A DNA stretch of 64,000 bases from Craterostigma plantagineum (taxonomy: Eukaryota > Streptophyta > Magnoliopsida > Lamiales > Linderniaceae), in contig JAPQWV010000017.1 in the NCBI GenBank assembly GCA_027422505.1, positions 21,267,501-21,331,500 of the forward strand. The letters run 5' to 3'. The position numbers and the translations under genes are program-made. The notes beneath the pieces were generated by a model that was not told the DNA's origin, searched no databases, and worked only from the letters and a program-made list of their open reading frames with translations. Positions 1,079 through 64,000 of this stretch are shown here, piece by piece. The first letter of the stretch is position 1. Each line of letters starts with the position of its first letter.

Positions 1079-2554
1079 TGATAAACGTATTTTAATGCGT
1101 TTATCATATTAATTATTCGGGGTATAATAGAACCTTAGCAATGAATTCATGCATTTATTCGATATATTTACACTTGTTTTGTTGTTGAAGGAGCTTAGGA
1201 CGAGTTTCAGGCGAAAAGGAGCGAAAACGAGGCAAAACGGCGCGAAAAGGGTCACACTGCCCTCGGTCACGGCCAGACGCATTACGCGTCACGGCCGTGA
1301 CGAGGGACAGAAAGCGACGGAGAGGAGTACTGATGACGGTCACGGCCGTGACGGACTTTGTACCAGACTGTGACACTCGGCAGAGAATCAGGACGAAGAC
1401 ACTGTCGGTCGTCACGGCCGTGACGACCCCTGCACTAAACCGTGACGCAAGGCAGAGACTGGCGCTGACGACGGTCACGGCCGTGACGTGCTATGCGCTT
1501 GGCCGTGACCTTTGACAGAAAGTGACGAGACGCGAGCGGTGTTGGTCACGGCCGTGACGGCCTATGTCCCAGGCCGTGACCCACACGGGAATAGCTATAA
1601 AAAGCCCAAATTCGTCCCAGAAAGGGCACAACTTACCAGAGATCAATTCCCAATCATCCAGAGACGAAATTAGGGCGAAAAGAACAGGAAATCCCGTCCA
1701 GGAGCGCAAGAGACGGATCAACGAAGAATTCACGCAGAATTAACGAAGAACGAAGATCTTTCCACGAGGTCATCTCAGATTCATCAGTAGGAAAGATCAT
1801 GAGTTCTTCATCCTTATCTTTTAATTCTTTAGTTGTTTCTCCTTCAATTATGCGTAGCTAAATCCCCGTTGTGTTCGGGATTAGATGAACGCTAGGATAA
1901 TTCGTAGTTAAGACATATATTATCGTGACTTTGTGTTTTTGACTATTTATCGTTCTATGAATAAGTTTCGTTGCTTTAATATGTCTATGTGTTAAAGTGA
2001 TTGTGTGGAAAAACATTTAGGGCGACAGCTAAACAACGTTTAGGCCGTTCATAGAAGATAGGATTCGAGTATAGGGCGAAAGCAAATACTCGATCCTCGC
2101 CGTTAGTAATTATTGAATTTTAGATCCCCGCGAGCGTTTAGGGCGACAGCAAATTCGCGAGCGGATAGGAAATTACTGCGATTTAGTCTTAAGCACTTAG
2201 GAGCAATTTTACTGTCTTAGCCGATAATACCTAGCGGGATTCGAATCCCGAGCACGTCTTTATCATCTGAAAACTTTCGCATCAGTTAGTCGCGTTCTTT
2301 AAATTTCTGGTTGATTTAGGAGCGATCTGTTAGGTTAAGTCGTCAAACAATTTACGCACTTTATTTAGGCTAAATATCGAGTCGATAGGTCATTACTAGT
2401 ACTTGATTTATTCCTTGTGTTCGATACTCGTTTACTCACTTTACTGCACTACAAACGATAGGTCCACTGCCTATCGCACGTCGGTGATAGTAATTAGGTA
2501 TACGTTTTATTTATCACTTGTCGCACTTTCCATTCACACACCACGTGTCGATCA
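1079..2554 (+). repeat. Long terminal repeat of the Ty3-type element
   Basis: Starts TGATAAACG immediately after the polypurine tract and carries a terminal hairpin (TGATAAACG at 1079-1087 against CGTTTATCA at 1098-1106). It contains the palindrome array at 1288-1558 and a TATA-like ctataaaaag at about 1591. The right end is taken at ...GTCGATCA near 2554 because sequence homologous to another repeat's ORF resumes there. The 5' LTR is outside the window, so neither the exact end nor a target-site duplication can be checked. Confidence 0.5.
1288..1558. repeat. Array of five GTCACGGCCGTGAC palindromes
   Basis: Five exact copies of the 14-base perfect palindrome GTCACGGCCGTGAC lie at 1288-1301, 1339-1352, 1411-1424, 1474-1487 and 1545-1558. 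Spacing is 51, 72, 63 and 71 bases. Each is followed after a short spacer by a half-site (ccgtgac/ctgtgac) and often by a (g)acagaa-like word, so the array is a degenerate tandem repeat of about 60-70 bases. It sits just upstream of the LTR's TATA-like element. A related array lies in an unrelated Copia LTR at 51.8 and 56.2 kb. Confidence 0.85.
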
Positions 2555-3272
2555 CCTTCTGTGCCACAAATGCACAAATAGGACGCTATCCGATGAGGAA
2601 AACATCGCTCAGGAAATGAGTCGGGCCCCCATCTGCAAAGTCACTGACCTCCGCCAAGAGTCCAAAGGACCTGTCCATTACCGAGTATTCACGGTAATGA
2701 GGCAGGATGAGAGCTACTGTGAAGTCAGTGAGGCGGACTTCAAGTTTCTGCGCCTGGGCGACCTGTACAGCATGCTGGAATCCATGAAGCAGTTCAGACT
2801 CGTCCTCAGAAGTTGTGGACATCTCATACGTGCTGAACCGGTCACCATGGGATATGTGGCTATCAAACGCCACATGCTCAGACAGGTCAGATTCTTCGCC
2901 ACCCACGATCTGCAGATGGCGGTGGAGCACAACCTGAAGAAGGTGAATCTGACTCGCCCATCTTTCAAGAACGCGGACGACTACCGAGAGGGCGATGTGA
3001 TCGACGGAGACGATCCGGCGGTCGCCTACTCGAACTATAAGGGAAAGATGAGGATGCTGCGCTGCTCTGAAGTGGCAAAGTTCTCGGATGGAACGCTCAC
3101 CATCATCCAAGACAAACTAATGAAGATCTGCCGCATACTTTCAGAAGAAGATCCTCTCTGCCGATCCAAGTTCGCGAAGCTCATTGACGCTATAGCTAAT
3201 CGATTGGTACTTCGAAGGAACCTCCGCGCCTTCGAGTTCAAGCTAGGGCTTCGCGACACACTCACAAGCTAA
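2555..3272 (+). pseudogene. Repeat-encoded gag-like protein of unknown family (C-terminal part)
   Basis: The open frame runs from inside the upstream LTR to 3272; only the part after about 2555 matches other copies. It encodes about 235 residues and is a divergent relative of the minus-strand ORFs at 60.98-62.5 and 63.1-63.9 kb. Shared blocks are a HDLQMAxExNxKKVNxT motif, an FxDGTL segment and a C-terminal LRxxLRxFExxLGLR motif. I do not recognise the family: no zinc knuckle, protease, integrase or reverse transcriptase motif is visible. It ends 48 bases before a polypurine tract (aaagggggag, 3319-3328) and an LTR-like start, so it is probably the 3' ORF of a non-autonomous LTR element. The Ty3 LTR appears to have inserted into it, removing its N-terminus from view. 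Confidence 0.6.
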
Positions 3273-3330
3273 TCCACCACCGCTACGCTCAAGATTCAAG
3301 ACTCCCAACAATTGACACAAAGGGGGAGAT

Positions 3331-3560
3331 TGTTAGGATATTTAATTGATTGTGTCAATAGTTTAAGTCTTGGGATTAATTTTGTAATTATCTTTAGCTT
3401 GGGCTTTAGACAAGATTGTAATTAATTAATATTTAGTGATTGGGCCTTAATATACCTAGGGTTAATGTGGTATATAAGGTGTTACCAACTCACTTTTGAA
3501 AGTAATCAAAGATCAAAGGCTTATCCAAATTTTTCACACACTACACACACTCAAAGGTGA
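3331..3560 (+). repeat. Probable 3' LTR start of the gag-like element
   Basis: TGTTAGGATATT begins directly after acacaaagggggagat, the same 3' junction (acaaaggggagattg) as the two minus-strand elements at 61.0 and 63.1 kb. A TATA-like gtatataagg lies at about 3471. The right LTR boundary cannot be fixed; the given end is nominal. Confidence 0.45.
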
Positions 3561-23309: not shown

Positions 23310-23317
23310 AAAGGGGT

Positions 23318-25020: not shown

Positions 25021-25050
25021 AAAGGGGTGAATATACACTCATTAGTCTTA

Positions 25051-28896: not shown

Positions 28897-28981
<85 letters not shown>

Positions 28982-30698: not shown

Positions 30699-30736
<38 letters not shown>

Positions 30737-35031: not shown

Positions 35032-37315
35032 TCATGCAAAGGTCCCATCGATTTCCACGACCTCATAACCCTTTTCGATCGAAGCCTTAACCGCGTCGAT
35101 CAAAAGCTGAGTCTTCCTAGTAACAATCGCCCACTTCTTCTCCGGCAACTCACCTCCATACTTAACCCTCCCAACGAGCCTCGAAAACTCCTCGACCATG
35201 AGAGCCTCTTGAGGAAGCTTCCCCTCCTCGAGGCTCACCAAATGGTCCGTAGGCTTCGGGTCCCACCCTAAATCAAGTTCCTTGAAGGCCGACTTCGTAG
35301 TGGTCCAAAACGGAGCATTTCCCTCGTCGAATGGGATCACAAAGTCGTCCACGTGGAGGGTCCCGTGGGTCCCGACCACGGTTAGGTCCATGGTGAGGTT
35401 CGACAAGAAAGAGCACCGAAAGGTGGCGGTTACGCCTCCGCCGGCGTTGTTGTTGTCTTCCCAGTGTAAAAAGGCGCCGCAGTCGACGATGACTCCGTGG
35501 GCGTTGAAGGTCGTCCCGCGGAGGGCTTGGACGGTGTTCGGGAGTTTGTAGTCAGTTGCCCAGAGGATGGCTCGGATGCAGTACCAACCGACGTCTCCGA
35601 GTGCTCCGAGGGCGTCGAGGTCGGGCTTCACGCGTATGTTGTTCTCGAGGAAGCGTTGGTTCCCGAGGAATCCGAACGTGCTGTTGATCTGCATGAGAGA
35701 TGCATCTCAACAGTGGCGGAGGCAGAAAACTTTCCTAGTGGGGTTCAGTCTAATTGGACATCATACCCTATATTTTTGAAAAATTTCACTGGGGTCCCTA
35801 TAGTGTAATTTGTGTTCAATTTTACCCAAAACTTAATGTCCCCAAGTTAGTACTAATAAGAAATTCCAGTGGAGTCCAATGACCCCGGACCTCATGTGGC
35901 TCCGTCATTGCAGCTCAATATCAATTTTGTAAAAATTGCTAGACGAAAGTTAGATGGTATATTTGTTTTTTATTTTCGTTTTATATGCTAATATATAAAA
36001 GTATAGGTATATCATAGTCACCCATCTAAATAAATAATGTCAATTTTAATAATGTTTTTTTTTTTTGTACTTGGAAATTATTAAAAAAAAATTGAAACTA
36101 ACTAATTGGCCGCCTAGACAATTTATGTCGCATGACGCATAGCGCACCGCCTAGGCTTAGTTTTACAACCGAGTTCAATATCCATTAATGTTTATTTTTG
36201 TTGAATGTTTATTTCACCTAAACTTGAAGGAGTGTATAATATTTTAATTTTACATATTATATTATTACAAAAAGTCTCTCACGTCTACGTTGATTTTCTT
36301 CTTATCTGGCCATATCTTATACTCCCTCCGTCCCATAAGTTTATGGACATTTGGGTATTGGCACGGGAATTAAGAAACTGAATATTTTAATAATAAATTG
36401 TGTTGGAAAGGTAAAAAAGTGTATGTTTTGGCACGTCTTTTGATGATATTTAATATTATTATATTGATTGTTTGTGATAGTTTTTTTCCTAAAAAAAGGA
36501 AATGTACAAAAGATGTGGGACGCCCGATTTAGTAAAATGTACAAAAACTTTTGGGACGGAGGGAGTAATTTTTATTTGAGGATTGTCGTGAAGATTCATA
36601 TCCTACCTCAAAGTCGGGGCTCTAATTACCAAATAATCATTTATTTGAGAAAACATTCAACTTGAAGGAATGGTATTATATTTCATTTTATAAACTTAAA
36701 TTATATATATTATATATCAAAACGAATTACAATCTAATTGCTTATCCAGTCCTAAAACACTACAAAAGCCCTTCTCAGCAACTCTCAACACTCGTGGAAA
36801 GAAAAAACCAAAATATGAGTGTAAGAAACGAAAAGACATACGGATTTAACTTGTCCGAAGGCGTTAGCATCTGCCAAGAAAGCCCTCATCTTTTCCGTAC
36901 GAGGATGGTGCATCCACATCGTGGCATCCATAATCTGCAGCCCATTCGACTCAAACTCTCTGAGAATCTCATCAAGCTCGCCGACGTTCAGCGCCACTGG
37001 CTTCTCCAACAGCAGGTGCTTCTTCTTCCTCGAGGCCAAGACGGCCCACTTGAGGTGTAAACTCGTCGGCAGAGGAAGGTACACGGCGTCGACGTTTGGG
37101 TCGTCCAGGACGCCCTCGTAGGATCCGTACGCCTTGACAGTCGTGGGGAAGTCGTTGACCCTCGCAAAGGCGGCGGCTTTCTCCGACGAACGGCTGCCGA
37201 CGGCGACTATGGTGGAGGAAGAGGAGAGGAGTATGGCGCGGGAGACTTTGCGGGCGATTTGGGCGCAGCCCACGATGCCGAATCTGATTGTCGGTGGTGG
37301 TGGGTTTTGGCTCAT
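35032..37315 (-). CDS. GFO/IDH/MocA-family NAD(P)-dependent oxidoreductase
   Basis: Two exons on the minus strand (37315-36842 and 35688-35032) join in phase at VKS-INSTFGF, giving 376 residues, about the size of the plant At4g09670-type oxidoreductases. The N-terminal Rossmann fold begins RFGIVGCAQIARKV (glycine-rich dinucleotide loop), followed by VAVGSRS, DAVYLPLPTSLH and the family motif LLEKPVAL at about residue 105. Exon 2 carries the C-terminal substrate domain (VKPDLDALGALGDVGWYCIRA; GTLHVDDFVIPF). The donor is GTATGT and the acceptor ATGCAG. The 1.15-kb intron contains a Stowaway MITE. No membrane or signal segment, so probably cytosolic. Substrate is unknown; relatives act on sugars or similar diols. 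No defect seen. Confidence 0.93.
36322..36565. mobile_element. Stowaway (Tc1/mariner) MITE in the oxidoreductase intron
   Basis: Terminal inverted repeats CTCCCTCCGTCCCA at each end (36322; complement ending 36565), flanked by TA dinucleotides (36320-36321, 36566-36567). It is 244 bases long, non-coding, and lies wholly in the single intron. Confidence 0.95.
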
Positions 37316-38988: not shown

Positions 38989-41900
38989 TAAATGGTATCA
39001 GAGATTGTGTTTGGTGAGATTTGAAGTGGGTGTCTTCCATTGTAGGTGAAGAAAATAGAGTTTGAAGTTGAGAAGGATACCATGGCTACCCAAGGAGGTA
39101 TTTGGGCACCACATGGTGGGCAACCCATATTTGATGGTGAGAGTTATGATTATTGGAGTATTAATGAAGACTCTTTTGATTTCACAAGATTTATGGGAGA
39201 TAGTAGAAGAGGGATATGTGATAAATGAGAAAATAGAAGAGAAGAAAGATGGAAAAGGTAATGTTGTGAAGACTACGGTTTCGGATCCCGACAAGAAGGA
39301 GAATAGAAAGAAGGATGCAAGGGCTCTTTACTTGATTCAAGGAAGTTATCCAACAAGATTTTTCCGAGAATAATCGGGGCTCAAACCTCCAACGAAGCAT
39401 GAGAGATTTTGCAAAAGGAGTTTCAAGGCACCGATAAAGTTAGAACGATAAAGCTCTTAACCTTGAAGAGGGAGTTTCAAAATTTGCAAATGAAGGAGAA
39501 AGAGACGCTACAAGAGTATTTCTCTAAGGTGATTGAGTTTGTGAATCAAATAAAAAATTTGGGTGAAACTTTGAGCGATAAATCGGTGTGTGAGAAGTTC
39601 TTGATTAGTCTTGCTTCCAAGTACGACAACATTGTGGCCGTTATTGAAGAGACGAAAGACCTCTCCACTATTAGCGTGCATGATCTTATGGGCTCTCTTG
39701 AGAGACATGAAGAAAGGTTGAATAGGCATGCAGCCAAGTTCTTGAAAGCGCCTTTCAATCTAAGGTGAATGTGAAAGAGAGTAATAACCAAAGGGCGGCC
39801 AATAATACCTTCCGTGGTGGCTTTAGTGGTGGTAGAGGCTGAGGCCGATTTGGGGGGTAGATTTGGTAGTGGAGGTGGTAGAGGTACCTACCGAAGTGGA
39901 GAAGCTAAGCTATGCAACTTTTGCAAGAAGCCGGGCCATATAGAAAAAGATTGTTGGAACAAGGGGAAGGTTCAATGCTACAATTGCAAGAAATATGGCC
40001 ATAAAGAGAAATTTTGTAGGCTAAAGAATGAATAGCAAGCAAACTACACCGAAGAGAAGAGTCTCGAGAGAAATGATGGAAGCAAATTTTATGCATGCCA
40101 AGCGGCCAATGAGAAGAAGGAAGATGTGTGGTATGTTGATAGTGGATGTAGCAACCACATGACCGGGGATGAGTCGATTTTTTGCAAGCTTGATAGCACC
40201 GCCACTACTCAACTTACGATGGGAAATGGAGCCGTGGTGAAATCTAAGGGGAAAGGCACGATTGCGGTTGCATCGTAGAAGGGAAGGATGCTAATTCATG
40301 ACGTATTGCTAGTGCAGGATTTGGCTCAAAATTTGCTAAGTGTTGGGCAATTGGTTGAGCATGGTCATGCGGTTCACTTCAAGGGTGCAACTTGTAGAAT
40401 ATTTGATAAGGTTGGGAATAAAAGAGAGTTGATGGCCGTAGTGAAGATGGAGAGGAATAGAAACTTCCTTCACGCTCTCAAGCCCGAAAGAAGTGTTGCC
40501 TGGAAGGTTGGTGTGGGTGACGACTCATGGTTATGGCATAAGAGGTATGGTCATTTGAATTTTGAGAGCTTGAAGTTGCTAAGCAATAAGGATATGGTGT
40601 ATGGGCTACCAACTATAGAAGAGAAAGGTGGCGTATGTGAGGCATGTGCTCTTGGAAAGATACATCGAGAATCATTTCCAAAGGCGAAGGCGTGGAGAGA
40701 AAAGACGCCATTAGAGCTTGTTCACACCGATATTTGTGGTCCCATGAGCACACACTCACATGGTGGAAATCGGTATTTCATCACTTTCATCGATGATTCA
40801 AGAATGTTTTGGGTTTATTTTTTCAGGCAAAAGTCGGAAGAGCTTTATGTCTTCAAAAAGTTTCAAAGAATGGTTGAGAGACAAAGCGGTCGGTTGATAA
40901 AGAAGCGATAGAGGTGGTGAGTACAACTCCAAGGAGTTTGAGAAGTTTTGTGAAGATACCGGCTTAGAGAGACAATTGACGATTAGTTTTACACCGGAGC
41001 AAAATGGCGTGGTCGAGAGAAAGAATAGGACCATTGTTGAAATGGCAAGAACCATGATGAATGAAAAGGGATTACCATTGTCTTTTTGGGCGGAAGCTAC
41101 ATATACGGCGGTGTACTTATTGAATAGGTGTCCCACAAAGGCGGTTGAGAACAAGACTCCATTCGAAGCTTGGTCCCGTGGCAAAAAGCCATCGGTGAAT
41201 CACTTGAAGGTGTTCGGGTCCATTTGTTATGCACATGTTCCGAAAGAGTTGAAGAACAAGCTTGAAGACAAAGGTGAGAAGTGCATCTTTGTTGGCTATA
41301 GTATAAAATCAAAGGGCTATAGGCTCTTTAGCTTGAAGAGAAACAAAGTGATAGAAAGCCGAGATGTGATTTTTAATGAGAAGGATCACTGGGATTGGAA
41401 AGGAAAAGGAGTTGAAAGTGTGGCATATCCTATTTAAGATGATGCATAAGAAGGGCTAAGTGGTAGTGGGCACGATATCGAAGAGGAAGAACCATCTCCA
41501 TCTTTCCTACGATAAATATCGGGTCGGCGTCATCACCCCCAAGCTCAACGCCGATAAAATTGAGACCTATGACTGATATTTATGCACATTTCAATTTTGT
41601 TGTTGTTGAACCGGAGAACTTTGAGCAAGCAAGTAGAGAAGAAGTGTGGAGAAATGCTATGGAAGATGAGACAAACATGATTGTGAAAAATGAGACGTGG
41701 GAGTTGGTTGAGAAGCCGAAGGACAAGGATATTGTTGGGTTGAAGTGGTTATACAAGACAAAGACTAACCCGGATGGTTCAGTGCAAAGGCACAGTTGGT
41801 GGCGAAAGGGTACACTCAACAACCCGACAAGTGAGAGTAGCGCACTCTTCGGCGGAGGCCGAATATGTATCGGCAAGTGAAGGTACAAAGCAAGTTGTTT

Positions 41901-43879: not shown

Positions 43880-44334
43880 TGTTGGCCGGGAAAAGGAAAA
43901 TATATATTCGAAGATTGTGTAGCACACAATTTACTTAAAATAGATTCGCTCCCTCACGTATGTGCTGGAGGTTTTAGTGAGCGTCTATTTGGTAGGATAC
44001 TTCGAAAAACTTGGCGTTCGTTTAGCACAAAAACGATACCGACTACGAACGGAATAAGAACGATAGCAGAGACAATATTTTAGGTGTTAGTTTATTTATT
44101 TTCTTGTGTGTTTTTTTCTTAGGCCTAATGACCCTATTTATAGCCAAAAATTTGTAATATGTTTTTTTAATTACGTGACATACTCATTTGAGGAATGGTT
44201 TAAACCACTCCATCAAACCACTCCAAAAATCACTCAAAAAATCACTCCAAAAACCACTCCAAAAATCACTCAAAAAACCAACTTCTCCTCATTCACCTAA
44301 TTTATAAAATTAACATAATATAAATTATCTAACA
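43880..44334 (-). repeat. 3' LTR of Copia B
   Basis: 455 bases; includes a tandem run of 12-base units (cactccaaaaat) at about 44208-44282. A short segment near 43970 differs in sequence from the partner LTR. Confidence 0.93.
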
Positions 44335-47300
44335 ATCCCCACATGAATGAGAATTAGTTGGTTAATGTTTCTGCTAATCTAATGATACTCTGCATAGAGC
44401 ATAGTATGTTTACCATTTGAACTTCCTCCTTGTATGCACGCTTGGTTTACTGCAGTCCAATAGAACATGATGTCTTTGAACTGTCCCGCTTTTCGTGTAA
44501 ACGAACCCACGTACAATACACAGAGACCATTTTTCTCTTGTTCCGTTCTCATGGTTTTGTCCATTACGGCCATGGACACGTCCTGATTCTGCGAGGGTTT
44601 ATAAAGAACTAAGCCTTTCAGTTGTCCTTTGAAGCGGCCCCACTTCTCCCTAACATAGGTGACTTCTCACATCGCGAGTATTTTCTATCAATACTCTATG
44701 ATAGTCATAAAGCATCATAATGCTAGCCTTTTCCGTCATCACTGTTTCTTGACAGGAATGAGCGGGGCTTTCCCCCACAGTGATACCAAGTCCTAAGATT
44801 AGGTTGTCCCTTTGAACCTAGATCTTGGGATCTCCAGTCATATAGGTAGGGCTTTCCTTCTTAGCACTTCTATACTTTACGGCTTTAAGCCCATCACTTT
44901 CGTCAACCTTTCAACCGCATCTCTATTTAACCCTTTGGTTAGCGGATCCGCAATGTTATCCGTAGATTTCACATAATCAATCGAGATAACCCCAGTTGAG
45001 AGCAGTTGCCTAATGGTATTATGTCGACGATGTATGTGTCTCGACTTATCATTATACATAGTACTTTGCTCGTCCAATCGCCGATTGACGATCACAGTGT
45101 ATGCATATAGGCGGCACATGCTTTTCTCATTTAGGGATATCCTCTAAGAAATGGCGTAGCCATTCATCTTCTTCTCCACATTTATCCAAGGCAAAGAACT
45201 CGGATTCCATAGTGGATCTTGCTATAACTGTTTGTTTCGAGGATTTCCACGACACAGCAGCTCCAGCGAGTGTAAACATATAGCCGCTTGTGCTCTTAGA
45301 ATCCTTCATGTCGGATATCCAGTTCGCATCTCTGTGGCCTTCTAACACAGCCGGATATCGACCAAAGTGCAATCCATAGTCTCGAGTATACCTTAAGTAT
45401 CTCAAATCCGTATTATAGCGGGCCAATGATCCACACTTGGATTGCACGTGTATGAACTCAGTTTGCTTATAGCATAAGCAATATCTGGCCTAGTACAACT
45501 CATTAGATACATCAATCTTCCGATAATACGGGAGTATTCTACTTGAGCAATAGCCTCGCCGCGATTTTTCTACAAATGAACGCTTCGATCTAATGGCGTT
45601 CTATCAACACCAGAATCACCCTTGCAGAATTTATCGAGAATTTTGTCTACGTAATGAGCTTGGCTCAAAACAAGACCGTTACTCGTTCTTAAGATTTTAA
45701 TTCCTAAATCACGTCCGCAAGTCCCATATCATTCATGTCAAATTTCGAATTTAACATATCCTTGGTAGACTTGACCATTTGATGTTACTACCAATAGTGG
45801 GTATGTCGTCTACATACAGACATAAAATGACATAGTCATCGCCTGTTTCTTTTGAGTAAACGCATTTATCGTTCTCATTGATTTTAAAGCCGTAGTCGAT
45901 CATCGCGTGATCAAACTTTTCGTGCCACTTTTTAGGGGCTTGTTTCAAACCATTCAAAGATTTGATCAATCTGCAGACTTTCTTTTCGGTTCCAGGAGCA
46001 CGAAAACCTCGGGTTGCTCCATATAAACTTCTTCATCTAATTCACCGTTTAAGAAAGCTGTTGACATCCATTTGATGTACTTCCAAATTTCTTAAGGACC
46101 GATAACGAGTATCATCCTTATCGAATTTATTCTCGTCACGGGAGAATATGTGTCAAAGTAATCTAAGCCTTTTCGTTGCTTGTATCCTTTGATAACAAGT
46201 CTAGCTTCATACTTTTCCACAGATCCATCTGGTCTCATTTTTCTTTTAAAAATCCATTTTGATCCTAAAGGTTTACATCCCTTTGGGAGATCAACTAACT
46301 CCCATGTATGATTCTGCAAAATAGAATCAATCTCGCTATTTATGACTTCTTTCCATAAAGGCCCACGGAGCTCACTGCCTCGTCATAAATCAGTGGTTCC
46401 TTTTCAATCAAATATGTAACGAAGTCGTCACCAAAAGATTTCTCTATTCGGGCACGCTTGCTTCGTCTCGGTTCAATCTCATGAAGCGTACTACGAATCA
46501 CAGTTTCTATTTCATCTCGTTTAGATGTACCGGATCCATCATCGAATTTACAAGGAAATATATTTTCAAAGAAATATGCGTTCCTTGATTCCATTACCGT
46601 GTTCTTGTGTATATCCGAAATTTTCGAATCATAGACAAGAAACCGATATGCCGTACTATTGTGTGCATATCCTATGAAAATACAGTCCACCGTTTTGGGA
46701 CCAATTTTCACCCAAAAGGCGTAGGTACAGCTACCTTCGCCAAACACCCCCACATTCGCAAATGTTGGTACGAAGGCGTCTTTTCTTTCCATAACTCATA
46801 TGGAATTTTATTCATTTTCTTTCGAGGTATCCTATTTAATAGGTAATTACTTGATAAGATAGCTTCGCCCCACATATTAGGCGGTAGACCTGAACTCAGT
46901 AACATCGCATTCATCATTTCTTTTAATGTGCGATTCTTTCGTTCAGCAACTCCGTTTGATTGAGGTGAATACGGGGCGGTTACTTCATGAACGATACCAC
47001 AAAAGCTCCCAATTGGTGCTTCGTATTCCCTACCCCGATCACTTCTCAATCTTTTAATTTTCTTGCCGAGTTGCGTTTCAACTTCGGTTTTGTAGAGAAC
47101 AAATTTCTCTAATGCTTCGTCTTTGCTCTTAAGCAAATAAACATAGCAATATTTGGTGCAATCGTCAATAAATGTTATAAAATATTTATTGCCACCACGT
47201 GTTTGAACGTATTTCAAATCACATAAGTCGCTATGAATCAATTCAAGCGGTTCGGTACTTCTTGCTACCGAGGGAAATGATGATCTCGTCATTTTTGCTT

Positions 47301-48855
47301 CAACGCAAATTTCACATTTATGTTTCGAATTAATTTCGAATGTTGGAATGTGGCCTATGTTAATTAATCGACGTATCGATTCAAAATTAACGTGACCTAA
47401 TCTACCGTGCCATAAATTGGAAGATTCAAGCAAGTAAACGGAAGAACGTTTTCATTCTCATTTACAATAGTCATTACATTCAGCTTGAACAAACCATCAC
47501 AGGCATAGCCTTTACCAACAAACACACCCGACTTAGACAATATCACTTTGTCAGATTCAATAACAATACGAAAACCGTGCTTGTTCAACAAGAATCGCGA
47601 AGTTAGATTTTTTCGTATCTCCGGAACGTACAACACATCTTTCAGCGTCAATAATTTTCCGGAAGTCATTTTGAGCAGCACGCTTCCTTTTCCCTCGACG
47701 GTAGCAGCAACCGAGTTGCCCATGTGGATCTTTTCTCCTTCAACCGGCTCACAGGTAGAGAAGAATCTACGGTTCGTGCACACATGCCGTGTAGCACCGG
47801 TATCGATCCGCCATTCTTGTGGATTCGACCCAATCATGTTTACCACCGAAACTACAGCAACAAGATCTAAATCATTGACACCCTTAGTGATGTCTTTTAC
47901 CATGTTCGCTTCGTTGTTCCTTTTAGGGAAACGACAGTCCTACGACTTATGGCCCAATTTCCCGCAGTTGAAGCATTTTCCCTTGAACTTATAGATCGGC
48001 TTTGACACGCCTCCGGTCGCTCCAAGTTTTGCCTTGGTTTTAACCGGGCCTTTGCCCTTTTTGGAGCCATGCTCCACCACGTTTACCTTTGGTTCGGATG
48101 AGTTTGACACTCTCTTCTCCGACCGCTTGTTGTCTTCGATTCGAAGTCTGACAATCAAGTCCTCCAAAGACATCTCCTTGCGCTTATGCTTGAGATAGTT
48201 TTTGAAGTCTTTCCAGCTTGGGGGCAGCTTCTCAATGATAGCCGCAACTTGGAACGATTCGCTCAGAACCATTCGTTCTGCATGGATCTCGTGCAAAATC
48301 AATTGGATCTCTTGCACTTGACTAACCACAGTCTTGGAATCGACCATCTTATAATCAAGGAACCGTCCGACAACAAATTTCTTTGTGCCGGCATCCTCAG
48401 TGTTATATTTCCGGTCTAACGGTTCCCACAATTCCTTAGCCGTAGCGACCGCACCATACACGTTGTCCAGAGTATCGCTTAGGGCATTCAGAATATAATT
48501 ACGACATAGGAAATCAGAGTGTTTTCATGCATCAACAGCGATCACGACCTCAGCGTTCGTCTCGCCGTCGTTCACCTTAGGCTCGACCTCTTTCAGGTAG
48601 TTGGCCATTCAGCGTAGTGAGATAAAAGAGCATCTTTTGCTGCCATCTCTTGAACGTCGAGGCTGTCCCCATAAATTTCTCCGGTTTCTCCCGGTGGTTG
48701 ACTGGTACGTTTGGCTTTGTAACCACAGGTATGGCAGTGGAGATAAAAGTAGTAGGGAGAAAGTCAATGTTTTCTTCGTTTCTCGTAGATTCTTGGTCGT
48801 TGAGGAAGTCCACGTAGTCTGACATCTTTGCGGGATCGTCGCTCTATTTTAAGAT

Positions 48856-49307
48856 TGTTGGCCGGGAAAAGGAAAAATATATATTCGAAGATTGTGTAGC
48901 ATACAATTTCCTTAAAATAGATTCGCTCCCTCACGTATGTGCTAGAGGTTTGTCCATTTCACAGGATACTTCGAAAAAACTTGGCGTTTGTTTAGCACAA
49001 AAACGACACCGACTACGAACGGAATAACAACGATAGCAGAGACAATATTTTAGGTATTAGTTTATTTATTTTCTTGTGTGTTATTTTCTTAGGCCTAATG
49101 ACCCTATTTATAGCCAAAAATTTGTAATATATATATTTTTTAATTACATGACATACTCATTTGAGGAATGGTTTAAACCACTCCATCAAACCACTCCAAA
49201 AATCACTCAAAAAATCACTCCAAAAACCACTCCAAAAATCACTCAAAAAACCAACTTCTCCTCATTCACCTAATTTATAAAATTAATATAATATAAATTA
49301 TCTAACA
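48856..49307 (-). repeat. 5' LTR of Copia B
   Basis: 452 bases, partner of 43880-44334, with the same tandem 12-base units at about 49180-49256. Outer flank GTTTG. Confidence 0.93.
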
Positions 49308-51566: not shown

Positions 51567-52042
51567 TGTGGAAATTATTAGGTCTGAGTTTCGCCTCTGT
51601 TCTCGCTTCTAGTTTTTGTGTCGAGCAGAGAGTAAAGAAAATACAGTTTTATTTCATACTGAAAATTATCAGAGAGTTCACAAAGAAGACGCGGGCACCT
51701 ATATATATACAATATTCTTGGGCTTAAAATAAAGTCGGCCCAATCAGCCCATTATCTAATTAACCCGCTAATTGAAATAAACAATTATATAACAGAATAG
51801 TTCTCTGATGAGGGTCACAGTCGTGACTCTCAGTGTAGCAGCCCGTGATGCTTGGCAGTAAGTCCTCTGCTGAGGGTCACGGCCGTGACCCTCAATGTAT
51901 CTGCCCGTGATGCTTGACAGTAGGTCCTCTGATGAGGGTCACGACCGTGACCCTCAGTGTAGCAAGCCGTGACGCGAGTTTCTTATGAAACAGAGCAACT
52001 ATCTCGGTTCGGCTACCAGGCTAGCTAGTATATATCTCAATA
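51567..52042 (-). repeat. 3' LTR of Copia D with palindromic triplet array
   Basis: On the plus strand runs TGTGGAAA...TCTCAATA, so the element's own termini are TA...CA rather than TG...CA. Contains three palindromic units of the form GAGGGTCAC-GGCC-GTGACCCTC at about 51815, 51877 and 51939, spaced 62 bases, with substitutions mainly at the central CpG sites. Confidence 0.92.
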
Positions 52043-55000
52043 TTCCCCCTCAAGTGTGGTGTTCATATAGATCAAACACACCATACTTGGCAAGAAGGTA
52101 GTAAAACTGGTCCCTTCTTAAAGGTTTAGTTAGCAAATCTCCAGGCTGATCCGCGGAAGGAATGTAATCTGCTCGAATGGTTCCATCTTCTATCTTGTCC
52201 CGTATAAAGTGGCAATCAACCTCTATGTGCTTGCTCCTCTCATGGAATACAGGATTTGCTGCAAGCTGCAAAGCTGACTTGCTATCAGACCAAACCTGCA
52301 CAGGAGAAAGATTATTAATGTTAAGATCCTTCAAGAGGCCGAGCAGCCAAGTGACTTCAGATGTGACCAAGGACAATGCTCTATATTCTGCTTCAGCTGA
52401 GCTTTTTGCTACAATGGTTTGCTTCTTCGATTTCCATGACAGAATGGATTCTCCAAGCTTTATTAAATACCCCGATAATGACCTTCGAGTGTTAGGACAT
52501 GCAGCCCAATCTGCATCACAGAAAACATTAAGATTGAGTTCACTTTTGGCAGATAATAATAACCCGAGGCCTGGTCTGCCTTTTAAATATCGTCTCTATA
52601 AGCTGCATCCAAATGAATCTGTCTCGGCTTATGCATGAACTGACTCAGCATCTGCACAACATATGTAATGTCAGGTCTTGTAATGCATAGATATAATAGC
52701 TTCCCTATTAACCTTTGGAAACCAAAAACATCATCAAGAACTGGATCATCTTGGCTGATTTTTTCTCTAACAGCCCTACTATTCTCTTCTACTGGAGTGG
52801 GAGCTGGTTTGCATGCTGTCATACCAGTTTCACTTAACAAATCAATGACATATTTCCTTTGGTTTAAATAAATACCCTCCTTGAACCTCGCAATCTCAAT
52901 TCCAAGGAAGTACTTCATCTCCCCTAGATCCTTCATAAGAAACATTTGCTTAAGATAATCTTTACACTTATTTATAGTTGAAAGATCATTTCCTGTAATT
53001 AGTATATCATCAACATATACTAATAATACTATGAATTTATCTTTATCTTGTTTAGTAAATAAGGAGTAATCATGCTTGGACTGGAGTGAAACCCTACTTA
53101 CTAACGACCTCAACAAACTTGTGATTCCATTGTCTTGAAGCTTGCTTCAAGCCATACAATGGTTTCTCAAGTTTACAGACCTGATTCTTGCCTTCTTCTG
53201 AGATGTTAAGACCTGGGGGAACTGCCATATACACTTCATCGTGTAAATCACCTTGAAGAAAAGCATTAGTAACGTCCATTTGAAATAAAAACCAATTAAA
53301 AATGGATGCAAGTGATAAAACAGCTCGGCTTGTGACATGTTTAACAACTGGTGAGAAGGTTTCATTGTAATCAATGCCTTCCCTTTGAGAGTATCCCTTA
53401 GCTACTAATCTAGCTTTGTATCTTTCTACCTCCCCATTTGATCTGTATTTAATAGTATATACCCATTTACAACCTATAACAGCCTTTCCTGTGGGATGTC
53501 TGACCAGTTTCCAAGTCTTGTTCAATTCTAGTGCTCTTAGTTCAGAATTCAGACCTTCTACCCACCTGTTATCCCCCTTTGCATCTTCATATGATTTAGG
53601 AATATGATCCTTAGAAATGGCAGCTAAATATGCCTTATAATCAGATGTAATTCCATTATATTGGATCACATCTGCCAGAGGATATTTAGCACTATCTGTC
53701 ATATTAATATATGATACATAAGGAGATACAAAATCACTATGCCAATGGGGTGGCCTTGAAACTCTACCTGATCTTCTTACCTCTGTTGTGGTATGCTGTT
53801 CTGAAGGCTCAGCATGTATACTAGGCTGTTCTGAAACAGGTTGCTCTGTGCTTTCATGTGAAGGCTCATCAGGTATACTATGCTGGGACAGATCTATACT
53901 CGTATTACTCAGGTGTTGATAGGGTACAATCAGTTCATCATGAAAAAACTGCTCATCACGAGATGAAAAATCCTCCCTCTCATAATCAGTAGCATTAGTA
54001 ACAAATGGAAATTTATCTTCAAAAAATATCACATCTCTAGATATAATAAAGTTTTCGGAATCTTGATCAAGCAACCTGTAACCTTTCTGTGTGATTGAAT
54101 AGCCCATGAAGACACACGGTTTGGACTTGTGCTGGAATTTATCCTTCTGCATAAGAATCTTAGCAAAACATAAACAGCCAAACACTTTAAGGTGTGAGTA
54201 GGAAGGCTTCCTACCAAAGAGAACCTCGAAAGGTGTTTTTCCATTTAAAACAGGGGTAGGAGTTCTATTTATAAGATATATGGCAGTCTTCACACACTCA
54301 CCCCAGAATTTCATGGGGACATTTGAATGGAATTCAAGTGCTCGAGCAACATCAAGTATATGTCTGTGTTTTCTTTTCACAACACCATTTTGTTATGGAG
54401 TATATGCACATGAACTTTGGTGTATAATGCCCTTGGGAAGCTAACATGGTGTTACATTCATGGGAAAAAAAATCTGATGCATTGTCACTCCTAACGACCT
54501 TAACTCCAGTTTCAAACTGGTTTTCAACATAAGTAATGAAATCTTTTAGCATGTGAACCACCTCAGATTTTGACTTCATCAAGAATATCCAACAAGCTCT
54601 AGAGCAATCATCAACTATAGTAAAAAAATACCTTTCATTGTTATAGGTTAACTCCCTGTATGGAGATAGAAGTACCCTACAACATGAACCATTTGGTAGA
54701 TTAACACTGCTAATCTTGCAACTATCATCAAAATTACTGAAAAATTCACTGCTGCAGGCAATATGATGATTGGCTCCAGACTCTATTATCCAATCATGTC
54801 TAGAGTTAGGACACATACCTGTAGTATTAATGGTGGCTGAGGTGCCAATTGCCTTTGACTCTTCAAGATTGGCATTCTTTTCAAGCATTTTTAAGATCTG
54901 GGAATATTGCTCGCTTGTGAAGCCTTGCTGGGCACTCGAGCTCTCCCCCTTAATTCTATCTTGTTCTGCCTTTGAGATTATGATGTTATTTGCTCTGCCC

Positions 55001-55976
55001 TTAAAGCCTCCAAACCTGCCTTGGCCTCTTTTTGGTCCAATTCCACCTCTTCTGCCTCCCCGGACAAAATTTGGTGGATAACCATTGATCTTGAAACAGT
55101 TTTCCCTGTTATGGCCACTCATATTACAGTGGTCACAAAATAGTGCAGCCTTTCCAGTCTGATTGTTATTACCCCCGAAGTTATTAGTAGGAAAGTGTGT
55201 CATGAGTGCTATGGATGAATCAATGTTTGAGGCTTGCAGATTTATCCCCCGTTGAGCCTCCTCATTGATCACCATTGAGAAGACTTGACTGTGGGAAGGA
55301 AGAGGAGTCAGCAGACGTATCTGAGACCTAAAATTCTGATAGCAGTCGTTTAATCCGATCAAGTATTGCATCATCTTCTGCCAGCTGTAGAATTCTTTGT
55401 ACTCCTTGGTTATTTCGTTTGCAGGTGATGGTATAAGGGAGTCGTACTCGTCCCAAAGTGGCTTCAATCTGTTATAGTACTCCGAGACAGTCGATGCACC
55501 TTGAGTGCTTGAATAAATCTCCCTAAAGAGTCCATACATTCTTGCGCCGTTGATTTTATCAAATCTTTGTTTCAGATCTTCCCAAATTTCAGCTGCACTG
55601 ATATGGTAGACGATACCTGAGATCAGTTCTTTAGAAATCGATCGGTGAATCCAGGTCTTTACCATAGCATCACATCTTTTCCATTGTGCAAAAAGTGTTG
55701 AGTTTCTCTCAGGACATTTGCACGATCCGTCGATGAATCCAATCTTGTTCTTTGCCTCGAGCGCGATCATCATCCTCATGCTCCAGATCTTGTAATTCTC
55801 AGAGCCTTTGAGGATTCCAATCGTCAAATCGAGGCTTGGTGTATCTGAAGGATGAATATACATTGGACTGTTGAATTGCACGATTCCCGCGCCATCTCTT
55901 GAATTCGAAGAATTCTGTGAATTATCCTCTGTTGCCATTATCGCACGAGACTATTTCAATCGTGGCTCTGATACCA

Positions 55977-56453
55977 TGTGGAAAATCTTATGTCTGAGTT
56001 TTGCCTCTGTTCTCGCTTCTAGTTTTTGTGTCGAGCAGAGAGTAAAGAAAATACAGTTTTATTTCATACTGAAAATTATCAGAGAGAGTTCACAAAGAAG
56101 ACGCGGGCACCAATATATATACAATATTGTTGGGCTTAAAATAACGTCGGCCCAATCAGCCCATTATCTAATTAACCGCTAATTGAAATAAACAATTATA
56201 TAACAGAATAGTTCTCTGATGAGGGTCACCGCCGTGACCCTCAATGTAGCAGTCCGTGATGCTTGGCAGTAAGTCCTCTGCTGAGGGTCACGGTCGTGAC
56301 CCTCAATGTATCTACCCGTGATGCTTGGCAGTAGGTCCTCTGATGAGGGTCACAACCGTGACCCTCAGTGTAGCAAGCCGTGACGCGAGTTTCTTATGAA
56401 ACAGAGCAACTATCTCGGTTCTGCTACCAGGCCAGCTAGTATATATCTCAATA
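55977..56453 (-). repeat. 5' LTR of Copia D with palindromic triplet array
   Basis: Partner of 51567-52042; palindromic units at about 56220, 56282 and 56344 (gagggtcaccgccgtgaccctc and variants). The two LTRs differ by scattered substitutions and a few 1-3 base indels. Confidence 0.92.
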
Positions 56454-59938: not shown

Positions 59939-60656
59939 CACGGCACATTGTACCGCCTCGGCCCATAACTCCTTTGGCATTCCCTTGCTTTTCAACATTG
60001 AGCGAACCTTGTTGTGGCGAATACGGTGTTGTGAGGAATATCATATTCCTCGCAGAAACTACGAACGCGCTCGACATGTATTCTCCACCTCGATCTGAAC
60101 GAAGCGAAGCGCCTTGATACTTGAACTTCTCGTCTTCTCAACCATAATTTTGAATTTTTTAAACGACTCCAGCGCTTCGGATTTTTCGTGAAAATATACC
60201 AGTCTTTCTCGACTAATCGTCGATGAATGTGATGAAGTATCTTTTTTTGCTAAATGCTTCCGGGGTGATAGCTCCGCATATATCGATGTGTATCAGGTCG
60301 AGAGGTTTGCTTGCTCGAAATCATGCGTGCTTCTGAAACGACGTTCATGTCTGTTTGCCAATCACACAACTTTCGCAAAGCTTCTTTCCTACCTCTATCA
60401 TCGGCATCTCGTGCAGCATGCCGCGCTTGGAGAGCTCTTTCAGGCATCCGTTGTGTAGATGTCCAAATCGAATATGCCACAAATGACCTTTGTCTAAGTC
60501 AACTTGCAAGCATTTCTATTGAATGGTCCTCAGGTTGAGTTTGAATTTTCGGTTCCTTTCTATCTCAACCCGTGCAATTAGTTTACCATCTTTGTTTCGT
60601 AGTTGTAATGAGTGGTCCTTCATGAACACTGAGCATTCCTTTTTAAGCAACTGCTC

Positions 60657-61007
60657 TGTTAGGTCCTCTGTTATCAACTCAATCAATCCTAGGCATGAAC
60701 TCTAAAGAAATCGATTAGAATGATTTAAATTGAAATTCGAACGAAAACGTTCGATGAAGAACACGAGAGAGAATTCCTTTAGTGAGATGATGTTTACTGA
60801 GTTTCTCTCTCTAGAAATGAATTCGACAGCCTTTCGGATCAATTCTCTAATTTTCTGTATTAAGCATAATGTTTGTACAAGTATTTATACCAAAAAAACT
60901 TGGTATAAATATCTAACTAGTCCTAATCTATGGACTAATACAAATAAAGCCCCTAATTACAAGGACAACTAATGAAATCAAGTACAATCTAAAATGTATA
61001 CTCTACA
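60657..61007 (-). repeat. 3' LTR of the small LTR element
   Basis: 351 bases. Contains a perfect 11-base inverted repeat ATTTATACCAA / TTGGTATAAAT at 60883-60893 and 60900-60910, which places a TATAAAT on both strands. Confidence 0.85.
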
Positions 61008-62506
61008 ATCTCCCCTTTGTGTTTGATTGCGTCTTCGTGCTGCTTGTCCTCGTCCGGCATAGTATGATCGGCGCAAACCCAACGTATGCTCAAAGTTCCT
61101 GAGCGTGTTCCTCAGCTCCAGACGCTCCTCGATATCTTCTAATAGTTCCATTAGGAGCGGTTGTTCTCTCACGAACCTGTGGATTCTCAGCATTGTATCT
61201 CGATTGATTTCTTCCAACCTCTGCTCTATGTTTTTCCTGATGACCCTGAGAGTCCCATTGCAAAACTTGTGAATCTCAGTCTTCAGCATCAACCTATTCT
61301 TCTTAGCTATTGGATTGTGGTAGGTGATGCCTAGGACTAAGCTGATGTGCACGTGATTGTTGGGAAGCCCTTCGATCTCAGGTCCTTTGTTGAGCGGAGC
61401 GGTCATGTTGACCTTCTTCATGTTGCTCTCCAGAGCCATCTGAAGGTCGTGCGCGGTGAAGTACTTGGCTAGGTGCATCATGAACCGGTAGAGTCCCTCG
61501 AGTCCTTCTTTCTTGATGAAGCCTTGAGGACCTTTGTACTTTTCCACGTACAGCTGATAGAGATTGTATACCTCATCAGCAGGGATGTACGATAGCTCGC
61601 TCTCGCTTAGATCTTCTCGAGTTCTATCTACTCGCTCGATGGTGTAGTGAGCTATTGGAAGTCCTCCTTTTGCACAGTATACGCTGAGTAGTTGGCATAT
61701 TGGGAGAGACTCTTATAGTGGCTCTTGACTCGTTCTTTAGTCATCCCCAACCTTACATCAGGTCCAAGTCTAGTTAGCATCCAGAGGCAGGTCATTCTCT
61801 TTAGCTGATCCCAGTGAGAGATCTCTCTCAGCTCGAACTCGTTCGACTTCTTAACTCTGTCCGGTGACCTCCAAATGTTTTCACGAACTTCTTCAAGGAA
61901 AGGGATTTCTATTCGGATGTTCTCCCACGGCGTGTCGATCCGAACGGTCCCTGGCGTTAGTCTTGTGGGGGAAGCCGCTCGTTGCGCGATCAATTCTGGT
62001 AGCCTTGGAGTATCTTGTTGGTAGTCTTCACCTTCCTGAAGCTCATCGTCTTCTATGATCACGAGGTCTACGGAGGCTTGTTGTAGGAAATGCCGAACGT
62101 CCTGAAGCCGTTGTCTTTGATGCTCCTCGGGCATGAAATGGGTCATCCACTGTCCTTCAAAGATGTATTTGTCTAGAACCTCGTGTGGATTGACGCCATG
62201 TCCTGAGGGGCCCGGTTGGTCTGGAGCGACCGAGGGAGTAGCTTGAGTAGCTGCTAGGTCTACGAGCATCGCGGCACTTGCTTCTTCTTCCGAAAGCAAG
62301 GGGCTTGTCAGAATCAGTGGTTGGGTTTCACCTGCTCCAGCGCTTGTTTGCGTTGCACCCGAGCCTTGTCCTTGGCCACTCGTCGTTTCAGTCCTTGGCC
62401 TCTTCTCCCCCTCATGAGGATCCTGATCGTCAGGATCGTCATGTCGTCGTCTGGATTGGGAGCTTTGGCCTCGACACGTTTGGGTTGGTGGCACAGGATG
62501 GTCCAC
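60978..62506 (-). pseudogene. Unknown gag-like protein, copy 1 (single frameshift)
   Basis: Two overlapping parts: 62506-61652 (284 codons) and a continuation ending 60978. The N-terminal 120 residues are Gln/Gly/Ser/Thr-rich and disordered-looking with an RRR basic run. Then follows a folded-looking region with YIFEGQWMTHFMPEE, WENIRIEIPFLEEVRENIW, LWMLTRLGPDVRLGM, YVEKYKGPQGFIKKEGLEGLYRF, HDLQMALESNMKKVNMT and LRNTLRNFEHTLGLRR. Comparison with copy 2 shows one base fewer in a C-run (TCTCCC-AAT against TCTCCCC-AAT, about 61705), which shifts the frame. A second one-base loss in the polypurine tract lets the frame run into the LTR. I recognise no Pfam-type family. Position and element context suggest a gag or structural role, which is inference. 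Confidence 0.75.
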
Positions 62507-62751
62507 CAGTCGCCTATAGAGTGATTCCTCCTGAGGCGACCGGATGGTGAGACCGATGAGGCTGGCTAGCAGAATATCATGGAGCTGGGTGATTGGGATG
62601 GTGTATAGGTTGATGAGAATGGATGAGTTTTGTAGAGGGTCGGTGGGAGTGGGTTGTGAGGTTGTGAGGCGACTTGTGCTGAAGCTGGCTTCGAGACGGG
62701 TGCTTTCCCTCGATCTTCACGGGGCGTCTCGATAGTCGTATGCACGCTCTC

Positions 62752-63102
62752 TGTTAGGTCCTACGATTAACAACTCTACGATCCGAGGCTAGAATTCATA
62801 GTAATTCGATCGTTATGATAAGCAATTGAATTCGATCGAAAAACTCAAATGAAGAACAAGAGAGAGAATTCGAGTAGAGTGAGAAAGTTACTGTTGTTTC
62901 TCTCTCTAGAAATCGAATTGCAAGCCATTCGGATCAATTCTCAGAACTTTCTCTATTCAGCTCAATTGATTTAAAAGTATTTATACCAAACAAACTTGGT
63001 ATAAATATCAAACTAGTCCTAATCTAAGGACTACTATACAAAATGCCCCTAATTACAAGGACAACTAATGAAATCAAGCACAATTACAAATTGTATTCTA
63101 CA
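62752..63102 (-). repeat. LTR shared by the two tandem small LTR units
   Basis: 351 bases, clearly homologous to 60657-61007 but noticeably diverged. Keeps the inverted repeat at 62979-62989 and 62996-63006. A polypurine tract (aaagggggag) adjoins it on the right, as expected of a 3' LTR of the next unit. Confidence 0.85.
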
Positions 63103-63998
63103 ATCTCCCCCTTTGTGCTTGATTGCGTCTCCACGCCGTTTGTCCTCGTCGGGCGTAATATGATCTGCGCAAGCCCAGCGCATGCTCGTAGTTCCTCAGA
63201 GTGATCCTAAGCTCCAGTCGCTCCTCGATATCTTCAAGCAATTCCATTAGGAGCGGTTGTTCTCTCACGAACCTGTGGATCCTCAACATAGTGTCTCTGT
63301 TGATTTCTTCCAACCTCTGCTCGATGTTTTTCCTGATGACCTTGAGCGTCCCATCGCAAAACTTATGAATCTCAGTCTTCAGTATCAACCTATTCTTCTT
63401 TGCTATTGGGTTGTGGTAGGTGATGCCTAGGAATGAGCTGATGTGCACGTGATTGTTGGGAAGCCCTTCGATCTCAGGTCCTTTGTTGAGTGGAGCGGTC
63501 ATGTTGACCTTCTTCATATTGCTCTCCAGAGCCATCTGAAGGTCGTGTGCGGCATAGTACTTGACCTGGCGCAACATGAACCGGTAGAGCCCTTCGAGGC
63601 CTTCTGTCTTGATGAAGCCCTGAGGACCTTTGTACTTCTCCACGTATAGCTGATAAAGACGGTACACTTGATCGGCGGGCAGGTACGGCAGGTCGCTCTC
63701 GCTCAGTTCCTCTCGGGTCCTGTCCACGCGAGCGATGATGTAGTGAGGTGTTGGAAGTCGTCCTTTGTCACAGTAGACGCTGAGTAGTTGGCTTATTGGG
63801 GAGAGACTCTTATAATGACTTTTGGTTTGTGTCTTAGTCATCCCCAGCCTAACGTCAGGTCCTAGTTTGGTCAGCATCCAGAGGTAGGTCATTCTCTTCT
63901 GCTGATCTCAATGAGAGATCCCTTTGAGCTCGAACTCGTTCGGCTTCTTCACTCTGTCCGGAGACCTCCAAATATTCTCATGAACGTCTTCGAGGAAG
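63098..63998 (-). CDS. Unknown gag-like protein, copy 2 (truncated by window edge)
   Basis: Open from 63892 to a stop at 63098-63100. Homology upstream of 63892 continues to the window edge (SPDRVKKPNEFELKGI-like), but a stop near 63910 interrupts the frame, so the upstream part may be damaged. Carries LWMLTKLGPDVRLGM, YVEKYKGPQGFIKTEGLEG, YAAHDLQMALESNMKKVNMT, KFCDGTLKVIRKNIEQRLEEI and LRITLRNYEHALGLRR. No frameshift where copy 1 has one. The last codons (QRGRL, stop) are the polypurine tract and the first bases of the LTR, so the ORF ends inside the LTR. Function unknown. Confidence 0.7.
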
Positions 63999-64000
63999 GG

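What the first reader, a model, noticed from the sequence alone, without database searches (positions are those of the whole stretch)
60657..64000. Small LTR retroelement family encoding one unidentified protein
Two tandem minus-strand units (LTR-ORF-LTR-ORF...) and a divergent third relative at 2555-3330 encode the same kind of protein: a disordered Q/G/S-rich N-terminus followed by a conserved region with HDLQMA.E.N.KKVN and LR..LR.FE..LGLR blocks. No pol domain and no zinc knuckle is present. Conservation of the protein between diverged copies, while the LTRs drift, suggests the protein is or was selected. It resembles the concept of TR-GAG elements, but the protein does not look like Copia or Ty3 Gag to me. 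This is my leading candidate for an undescribed system.
Basis: partly seen in the sequence, partly recalled or inferred. Interest (0 to 1): 0.8.

Follow-up and report, generated by a model that had tools for sequence, protein, structure and literature searches.

The report
Tail gene of plant Copia retrotransposons
The unidentified protein is the back half of an extra gene that some plant Copia-type jumping genes carry behind their usual genes, and the apparent tandem of tiny elements is best read as one such element inserted into another; it is a known kind of thing, but this family shows clear signs of having been kept by selection.

Summary
The sequence features are real; the "small LTR element family" is probably not. 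Three related ORFs sit just before a Copia-type PPT and a TG-starting LTR. A profile of them finds 108 proteins at E<=10 (103 at E<=1e-3), 107 of them named as Tanacetum; 1180 longer proteins match too, 120 of them listed. Of 228 relatives examined, 26 gene models also hold Copia pol, and in 26 of 26 this domain lies downstream of pol. The LTR-ORF-LTR-ORF layout fits a nested insertion better than a single-gene element: the LTRs are 75% identical (K2P 0.30), the ORF parts differ by 0.157, and no primer-binding site or early start codon follows the inner LTR. Selection is supported: dN/dS 0.13 over 215 codons. The protein has no Pfam match, transmembrane segment, zinc knuckle or convincing known fold. 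Lineage is unresolved. The far ends lie outside the window and could not be fetched.

The parts
60657..61007 (-). LTR B, 351 bp, 3' LTR of element 2 (TGTAG...CCTAACA)
   Evidence: flanked on its outer side by a Copia pol remnant
61006..61017 (-). PPT/LTR junction of element 2, AGGGGAG-AT/TG (one G shorter than in the other two copies)
61018..61712 (-). C-terminal conserved domain of the extra ORF, element 2 (P0001; the open frame runs on to 60978 inside the LTR)
   Evidence: hit by tblastn with relatives, best P0034
61655..62716 (-). middle part of the extra ORF, element 2 (P0002); first Met at residue 150; separated from P0001 by a one-base deletion near 61704
   Evidence: N-terminal motif shared with some Tanacetum proteins
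62717..62751 (-). stretch between LTR A and P0002: no PBS found; proposed insertion point of element 1 (predicted target duplication GAGAG)
62752..63102 (-). LTR A, 351 bp, 3' LTR of element 1
63101..63112 (-). PPT/LTR junction of element 1, AGGGGGAG-AT/TG, bordered by an inverted repeat
63101..63907 (-). C-terminal part of the extra ORF, element 1 (P0003)
63908..64000 (-). further upstream extra-ORF sequence of element 1 behind an in-frame stop; runs off the window
   Evidence: 82% identity to P0002 residues 272-338 over 64000-63800
2517..3272 (+). copy 3: C-terminal part of a diverged extra ORF (within P0004), cut at its 5' side
3321..3332 (+). PPT/LTR junction of copy 3, AGGGGGAG-AT/TG; its LTR starts at 3331
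1079..2516 (+). LTR of another element (TGATAAA...TTTATCA) that interrupts copy 3
   Evidence: sequence; its class (Ty3-like) is my reading, not tested
59939..60656 (-). Copia pol remnant into which element 2 is inserted
   Evidence: 37% identity over 164 aa to the window ORF 40279-40908, E 2.8e-27, match 60677-60216, i.e. reaching about 20 nt past the LTR edge; that ORF has Pfam gag_pre-integrs. Against: an 82-aa open piece of the remnant had no Pfam match and none of the 228 relatives hit it

Best explanation
The ORF is the C-terminal part of a sense-oriented extra ORF between pol and the 3' LTR (eORF-3'F / aORF-3S) of Ty1/copia elements, shared with a large Tanacetum family. In the fuller Tanacetum gene models the protein is about 1000 residues: an N-terminal region, a linker predicted with very low confidence (read as disordered), a run of long central helices (read as a coiled coil), and a C-terminal alpha/beta domain, the part seen here. 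The window holds the 3' ends of three such elements. Element 1 (LTR A) is most likely inserted, in the same orientation, into the extra ORF of element 2 (LTR B), which itself sits in an older Copia pol; copy 3 is interrupted by another element's LTR. Working mode (inferred): a non-membrane accessory protein made from the element's RNA, oligomerising by its central helices and acting in the element's own cycle (particle, RNA or silencing step). Shown: homology, position downstream of pol in relatives, selection, lack of TM and Gag signatures. Inferred: nesting, and the role.
For: Homology: profile A1 (3 window copies) finds 103 proteins at E<=1e-3 and 108 at E<=10, 107 named as Tanacetum; P0003 and P0004 against the Tanacetum-only alignment A3 give E 7e-13 and 1.7e-8 (single comparisons); tblastn with single relatives hits all three copies (best P0005 for copies 1 and 3, P0034 for copy 2). 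Position: 26 of 228 relatives hold Copia pol pieces, the domain is downstream in 26 of 26; N-terminal region before C-domain in 66 of 66 models with both. Cis signals: exact AGGGGGAGATTG at copies 1 and 3, 0.004 expected in the window. Nesting: LTR A/B 75.1% identical, K2P 0.302, versus 0.157 for the shared internal part; 87/350 vs 125/896 differences, Fisher p 8e-6. No TGG in the first 40 nt after LTR A and best primer-site match 7/12, whereas the Copia at 51567-56453 has 12/12 at offset 0 and a target duplication. First Met of P0002 at residue 150. Selection: dN 0.065, dS 0.495, dN/dS 0.131 (bootstrap 0.077-0.212), 215 codons; differences 18/14/50 by codon position.
Against: Order relative to pol rests on automatic gene models of one other genus, many of them close relatives, so 26 of 26 is not 26 independent events. 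Of 5 models with gag pieces, gag lies before the domain in 3 and after it in 2, and 3 of 228 are fused to Ty3-type pol (2 before, 1 after), so models do join neighbours. No pol belonging to these elements is seen in the window. The other control Copia (43880-49307) also lacks a recognisable tRNA-Met primer site, so that absence alone is weak. Residues 131-310 of P0002 show no significant similarity to 5 Tanacetum proteins tested; the N-terminal 130 residues do clearly in 2 of 5, weakly in 1 and not in 2, and hhalign gives that motif E 0.03 with probability 1.6%. Target duplications could not be checked.
Confidence: 0.78

Rival explanations
1. A non-autonomous LTR-ORF-LTR element (a TR-GAG-like 'TR-eORF') that moves with the help of full-length relatives; the tandem came from unequal recombination through a shared LTR.
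For: LTR ends are exact on both sides of 61008-62751 and both LTRs are 351 bp. Tandem elements sharing LTRs and single-protein TR elements are reported in sunflower (PMC11728184 and PMC9784723, passages seen).
Against: LTRs 75% identical while the ORF parts are 86%; no PBS found after the inner LTR, first Met at residue 150; relatives carry a longer ORF behind pol.
Confidence: 0.1
2. A tandem of full-length elements made by unequal recombination, followed by a deletion that removed gag, pol and the ORF's N-terminal half in the second unit.
For: Same orientation and same family; gives the same layout as seen.
Against: The deletion would have had to start exactly at the LTR end; a nested insertion gives that edge for free. 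LTR and ORF divergence differ.
Confidence: 0.1
3. The ORF is a diverged Gag or an Env-like protein.
For: Position before the 3' LTR is that of env-like genes (PMC7264820, parts 1 and 2 of 3 seen); the fuller relative is predicted with long central helices.
Against: No Pfam gag at E up to 10 in the four window pieces, no CCHC knuckle; Copia gag occurs as a separate domain in relatives (P0063). No TM-like window in the 7 proteins examined one by one (3 window pieces, 4 relatives); 6 of 107 short relatives have one.
Confidence: 0.06

Closest known systems
eORF-3'F of Ty1/copia elements, notably the SIRE lineage (Neumann et al. 2019, PMC6317226; passages seen)
   Same: Sense ORF of at least 250 codons between the polyprotein and the 3' LTR of Copia elements. 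The paper reports eORFs in 582 Ty1/copia elements, in 45 similarity groups, most eORF proteins without a known domain.
   Different: Whether this family is one of those 45 groups could not be checked (no supplement look-ups allowed). That paper raises the question whether such eORFs have any function; here dN/dS is 0.13 between two copies.
Sirevirus PPT/3'LTR junction (Bousios et al. 2010, PMC2829016; passages seen)
   Same: AGGGGGAG-AT/TG junction and an inverted repeat bordering the PPT in copies 1 and 3.
   Different: No PPT cluster near the 3' LTR, no CGG-CCG boxes, LTR of only 351 bp. The right repeat arm starts 19 nt inside the LTR with arms of 15-16 nt, nearer the paper's averages for classic Copia elements (18 bp inside, 19 bp long) than for Sireviruses (28 and 28); almost half of the classic elements have the repeat.
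Tanacetum coccineum and T. cinerariifolium hypothetical proteins and pol fusions
   Same: Homologous C-terminal domain; a charged motif (DDP.D...EGE) further upstream in the same order in some.
   Different: About 26% identity over the domain; window copies are broken and lack the N-terminal half.
TR-GAG elements (PMC9784723 passages)
   Same: Looks like two LTRs around one ORF.
   Different: LTRs are not a matched pair, no PBS found, ORF is not Gag by Pfam.

Membership tests
Ty1/copia element with sense 3' extra ORF (eORF-3'F / aORF-3S) | ORF in sense orientation just before PPT and 3' LTR | tested here: met
   3 of 3 copies; copy 3 stops 48 nt before the PPT
Ty1/copia element with sense 3' extra ORF (eORF-3'F / aORF-3S) | ORF lies downstream of Copia gag-pol in the same element | tested here: met
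   In relatives only: downstream of Copia pol in 26 of 26 informative gene models of 228; gag before in 3 of 5, after in 2 of 5. Not visible in the window.
Ty1/copia element with sense 3' extra ORF (eORF-3'F / aORF-3S) | 5-bp target-site duplication around the whole element | not testable with these tools
   5' ends lie outside the window; the genome search did not complete
SIRE / Sirevirus lineage | PPT octamer AGGGGGAG with AT/TG attachment site | tested here: met
   Exact in copies 1 and 3, one G missing in copy 2; three classic Copia elements share the octamer according to the paper
SIRE / Sirevirus lineage | Inverted repeat bordering the PPT | tested here: met
   Copy 1: 14 of 16 paired, 0 of 500 shuffles as good; copy 3: 13 of 15, 1 of 500; copy 2: none. 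Geometry nearer classic elements
SIRE / Sirevirus lineage | Several identical PPTs clustered before the 3' LTR | tested here: not met
   Of 5 AGGGGGAG in the window, 2 are the terminal PPTs of copies 1 and 3; one more in element 2 lies far upstream at 62405; the other two are elsewhere
SIRE / Sirevirus lineage | CGG-CCG repeated boxes in the LTR | tested here: not met
   None in LTR A or LTR B; the copy-3 LTR was not tested
SIRE / Sirevirus lineage | Reverse transcriptase phylogeny | not tested
   No RT of these elements in the window; no reference set of lineages was at hand
TR-GAG | Two LTRs of one insertion around one ORF | tested here: not met
   LTRs 75.1% identical against 86% for the ORF part
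TR-GAG | PBS next to the 5' LTR | tested here: not met
   No TGG in 40 nt, best 7 of 12; one of two control Copias also lacked it
TR-GAG | ORF encodes Gag | tested here: inconclusive
   No Pfam gag at E up to 10, no knuckle; fold searches gave no significant hit
Env-like protein | Transmembrane segment | tested here: not met
   0 hydrophobic windows in the window pieces P0001-P0003 and in 4 relatives; 6 of 107 short relatives have one

The most novel reading that the evidence does not exclude
Besides full-length elements, the extra ORF has founded self-standing LTR-flanked units that carry only this protein's C-terminal half and spread with help from full-length relatives, because the domain itself is what the helper machinery recognises or needs.
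Probability: 0.06. Interest if true: 0.6.

Novelty: new member of a known kind. Interest (0 to 1): 0.3.

Why it matters
Extra ORFs of plant Copia elements have been described as so diverse that the question was raised whether they have any function (PMC6317226, passage). This family offers a case where that can be tested: a recognisable domain shared between the window's plant and Tanacetum (1180 longer matching proteins, the 120 listed all T. coccineum), with dN/dS about 0.13 between two window copies. If the role were found, it would say what some Copia elements need beyond gag and pol. As an undescribed element type it does not hold up.

Full report
What is there. On the minus strand the window ends with: a Copia pol remnant (59939-60656), LTR B (60657-61007), an ORF region (61008-62716), LTR A (62752-63102) and a second copy of the ORF region running off the end at 64000. 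Both LTRs are 351 bp, start TG and end CA. In copies 1 and 2 the open frame runs up to and just past a polypurine tract, AGGGGGAG-AT/TG in copy 1, one G shorter in copy 2. Copy 3 on the plus strand (2517-3272) ends 48 nt before the same 12-mer (3321-3332); the 12-mer occurs exactly twice in the window with 0.004 expected from base composition. Copy 3 is 32% identical to copy 1 over 211 aa. Its 5' side is cut by a 1438-bp LTR of another element (1079-2516; read). All three ORFs are incomplete or broken: a one-base deletion near 61704 in copy 2, an in-frame stop at 63908-63910 in copy 1, truncation in copy 3.

What the protein is. Pfam finds nothing at curated thresholds. A profile of the three window copies against 5.8 billion proteins finds 108 proteins at E<=10, 103 of them at E<=1e-3; 107 of the 108 bear a Tanacetum name, nearly all 'hypothetical protein' (the best, P0005 with E 2.8e-17, is an unnamed ENA protein). 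The homology does not rest on that profile alone: P0003 and P0004 each match the Tanacetum-only alignment A3 (E 7e-13 and 1.7e-8 for one comparison), and single relatives find all three copies by tblastn at E<=1e-4 (best P0005 for copies 1 and 3, P0034 for copy 2). A search limited to longer proteins found 1180 at E<=0.001, of which the best 120 were listed. Of the 228 relatives P0005-P0232 examined, 26 contain Copia pol pieces by BLAST with the window's own Copia ORFs, and in 26 of 26 the domain lies downstream of pol. Pfam finds RVT_2 well above its cut-off in P0129, P0185 and P0144, and below it in P0146. In 66 of 66 models with both, an N-terminal region precedes the C-terminal domain. Against this: these are automatic gene models of one genus and not independent; gag pieces lie before the domain in 3 of 5 models and after it in 2 of 5, and 3 of 228 models are fused to Ty3-type pol, 2 before and 1 after. 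Such models join neighbours, so gag order is uninformative; the pol order is not what random joining would give.

How much of it is in the window. Window C-terminal residues correspond to the last roughly 260 residues of the Tanacetum protein. P0002 shares with some Tanacetum proteins a charged motif near its N-terminus (hhalign E 0.03, probability 1.6%; in shuffles 0 of 300 reach the score for P0155 and P0038, 5 of 300 for P0016, 278 and 282 of 300 for P0025 and P0111). The spacing between the two anchors is alike, 237 residues here and 220 there (my count). The stretch between, residues 131-310 of P0002, is not significantly similar in any of the 5. Fuller Tanacetum models go on for several hundred residues upstream of the motif. 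So the window ORF looks like the C-terminal part of a longer protein, without a start codon near its beginning: the first Met of P0002 is residue 150.

Why nested rather than tandem. If 61008-62751 with its two flanking LTRs were one insertion, the LTRs would have been identical at arrival and would have diverged no faster than the dead ORFs beside them. They differ at 87 of 350 sites (K2P 0.302) whereas the ORF parts of the two copies differ at 125 of 896 (K2P 0.157; Fisher p 8e-6). The two LTRs thus probably came from different family members that diverged while active, when the ORF was constrained. The inner LTR is not followed by a recognisable primer-binding site; the Copia at 51567-56453 in the same window has it exactly, with a GCTAC duplication, though a second control (43880-49307) does not. 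From the LTR A edge one frame is open for 61 codons, as expected if the ORF was interrupted there. The simplest account is that element 1 jumped into element 2's extra ORF in the same direction. This is inferred: the predicted GAGAG duplication and the missing halves lie beyond 64000, and the genome search tool did not complete (8 attempts).

Selection. Over 215 aligned codons of copies 1 and 2 (63152-63796 and 61056-61700), dN is 0.065, dS 0.495, dN/dS 0.131 with bootstrap range 0.077-0.212; differences fall 18, 14 and 50 on codon positions 1, 2 and 3. The reading frame has no stop in either copy over this block while the five other frames have 6 to 18. The protein was kept by selection for much of the time since these two lineages split.

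What it may do. No transmembrane-like window in P0001-P0003 or in four relatives; 6 of 107 short relatives have one, so an Env-like role is unlikely. No zinc knuckle in the window pieces or the 107 short relatives. AlphaFold gives the C-domain a plausible fold (pLDDT 75.5, pTM 0.67) with strands and two long helices, and the fuller Tanacetum protein a run of long central helices that I read as a coiled coil (overall a poor model), but no significant structural relative was found. I commit to a soluble, oligomeric accessory protein serving the element's own cycle; which step is open, and this part is inference at perhaps 0.4.

Comparison with what is known. [quoted passage not shown] PMC6317226, passages): 582 Ty1/copia elements with eORFs in 45 groups, 74% of SIRE elements with eORF-3'F. 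The PPT/attachment 12-mer and the inverted repeat around the PPT are those reported for Sireviruses, but some classic Copia elements share each of them, and the repeat's geometry here is nearer the classic average (PMC2829016, passages). Multiple PPTs and CGG-CCG LTR boxes were tested and not met, and the last 40 nt of LTRs A and B show no C-rich run (by eye), so I do not file it as SIRE. TR-GAG membership fails on the LTR pair and PBS.

Verdict. A known kind of gene in a degraded, nested setting. The part worth keeping is a conserved, selected, unassigned extra-ORF domain.

Noticed in passing
51567-56453: Copia element (minus strand): LTRs about 477 bp at 95.6% identity, tRNA-Met primer site 12/12 directly after the 5' LTR, GCTAC target duplication, gag, SH3 and RVT_2 domains. 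Its RNase H ORF ends next to the 3' LTR, leaving no room for an extra ORF.
   Followed up: partly
43880-49307: Second Copia element with LTRs of about 455 bp at 93.9% identity and a GTTTG duplication, but no recognisable tRNA-Met primer site after its 5' LTR.
   Followed up: partly
1264-1580: Inside the long LTR that interrupts copy 3, the unit GTCACGGCCGTGACG recurs several times (75% self-match).
   Followed up: no
63060-63115 and 3306-3365: Inverted repeat bordering the PPT, with different sequences but kept pairing in copies 1 and 3, lost in copy 2; matches the arrangement described in PMC2829016 (passages).
   Followed up: partly
63098-63112: In copy 1 the extra ORF reads through the PPT and ends at a TAG inside the first bases of the LTR, so the stop codon and the LTR edge overlap.
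   Followed up: no
17168-32851: Cluster of multicopper-oxidase (laccase-like) gene copies on the + strand: Pfam in 18338-19399 and 31512-32651, and 27627-28605 is 77.5% identical to the first.
   Followed up: no
15510-15977 and 35035-35706: Likely exons of a 50S ribosome-binding GTPase (+) and of a GFO/IDH/MocA dehydrogenase (-).
   Followed up: no
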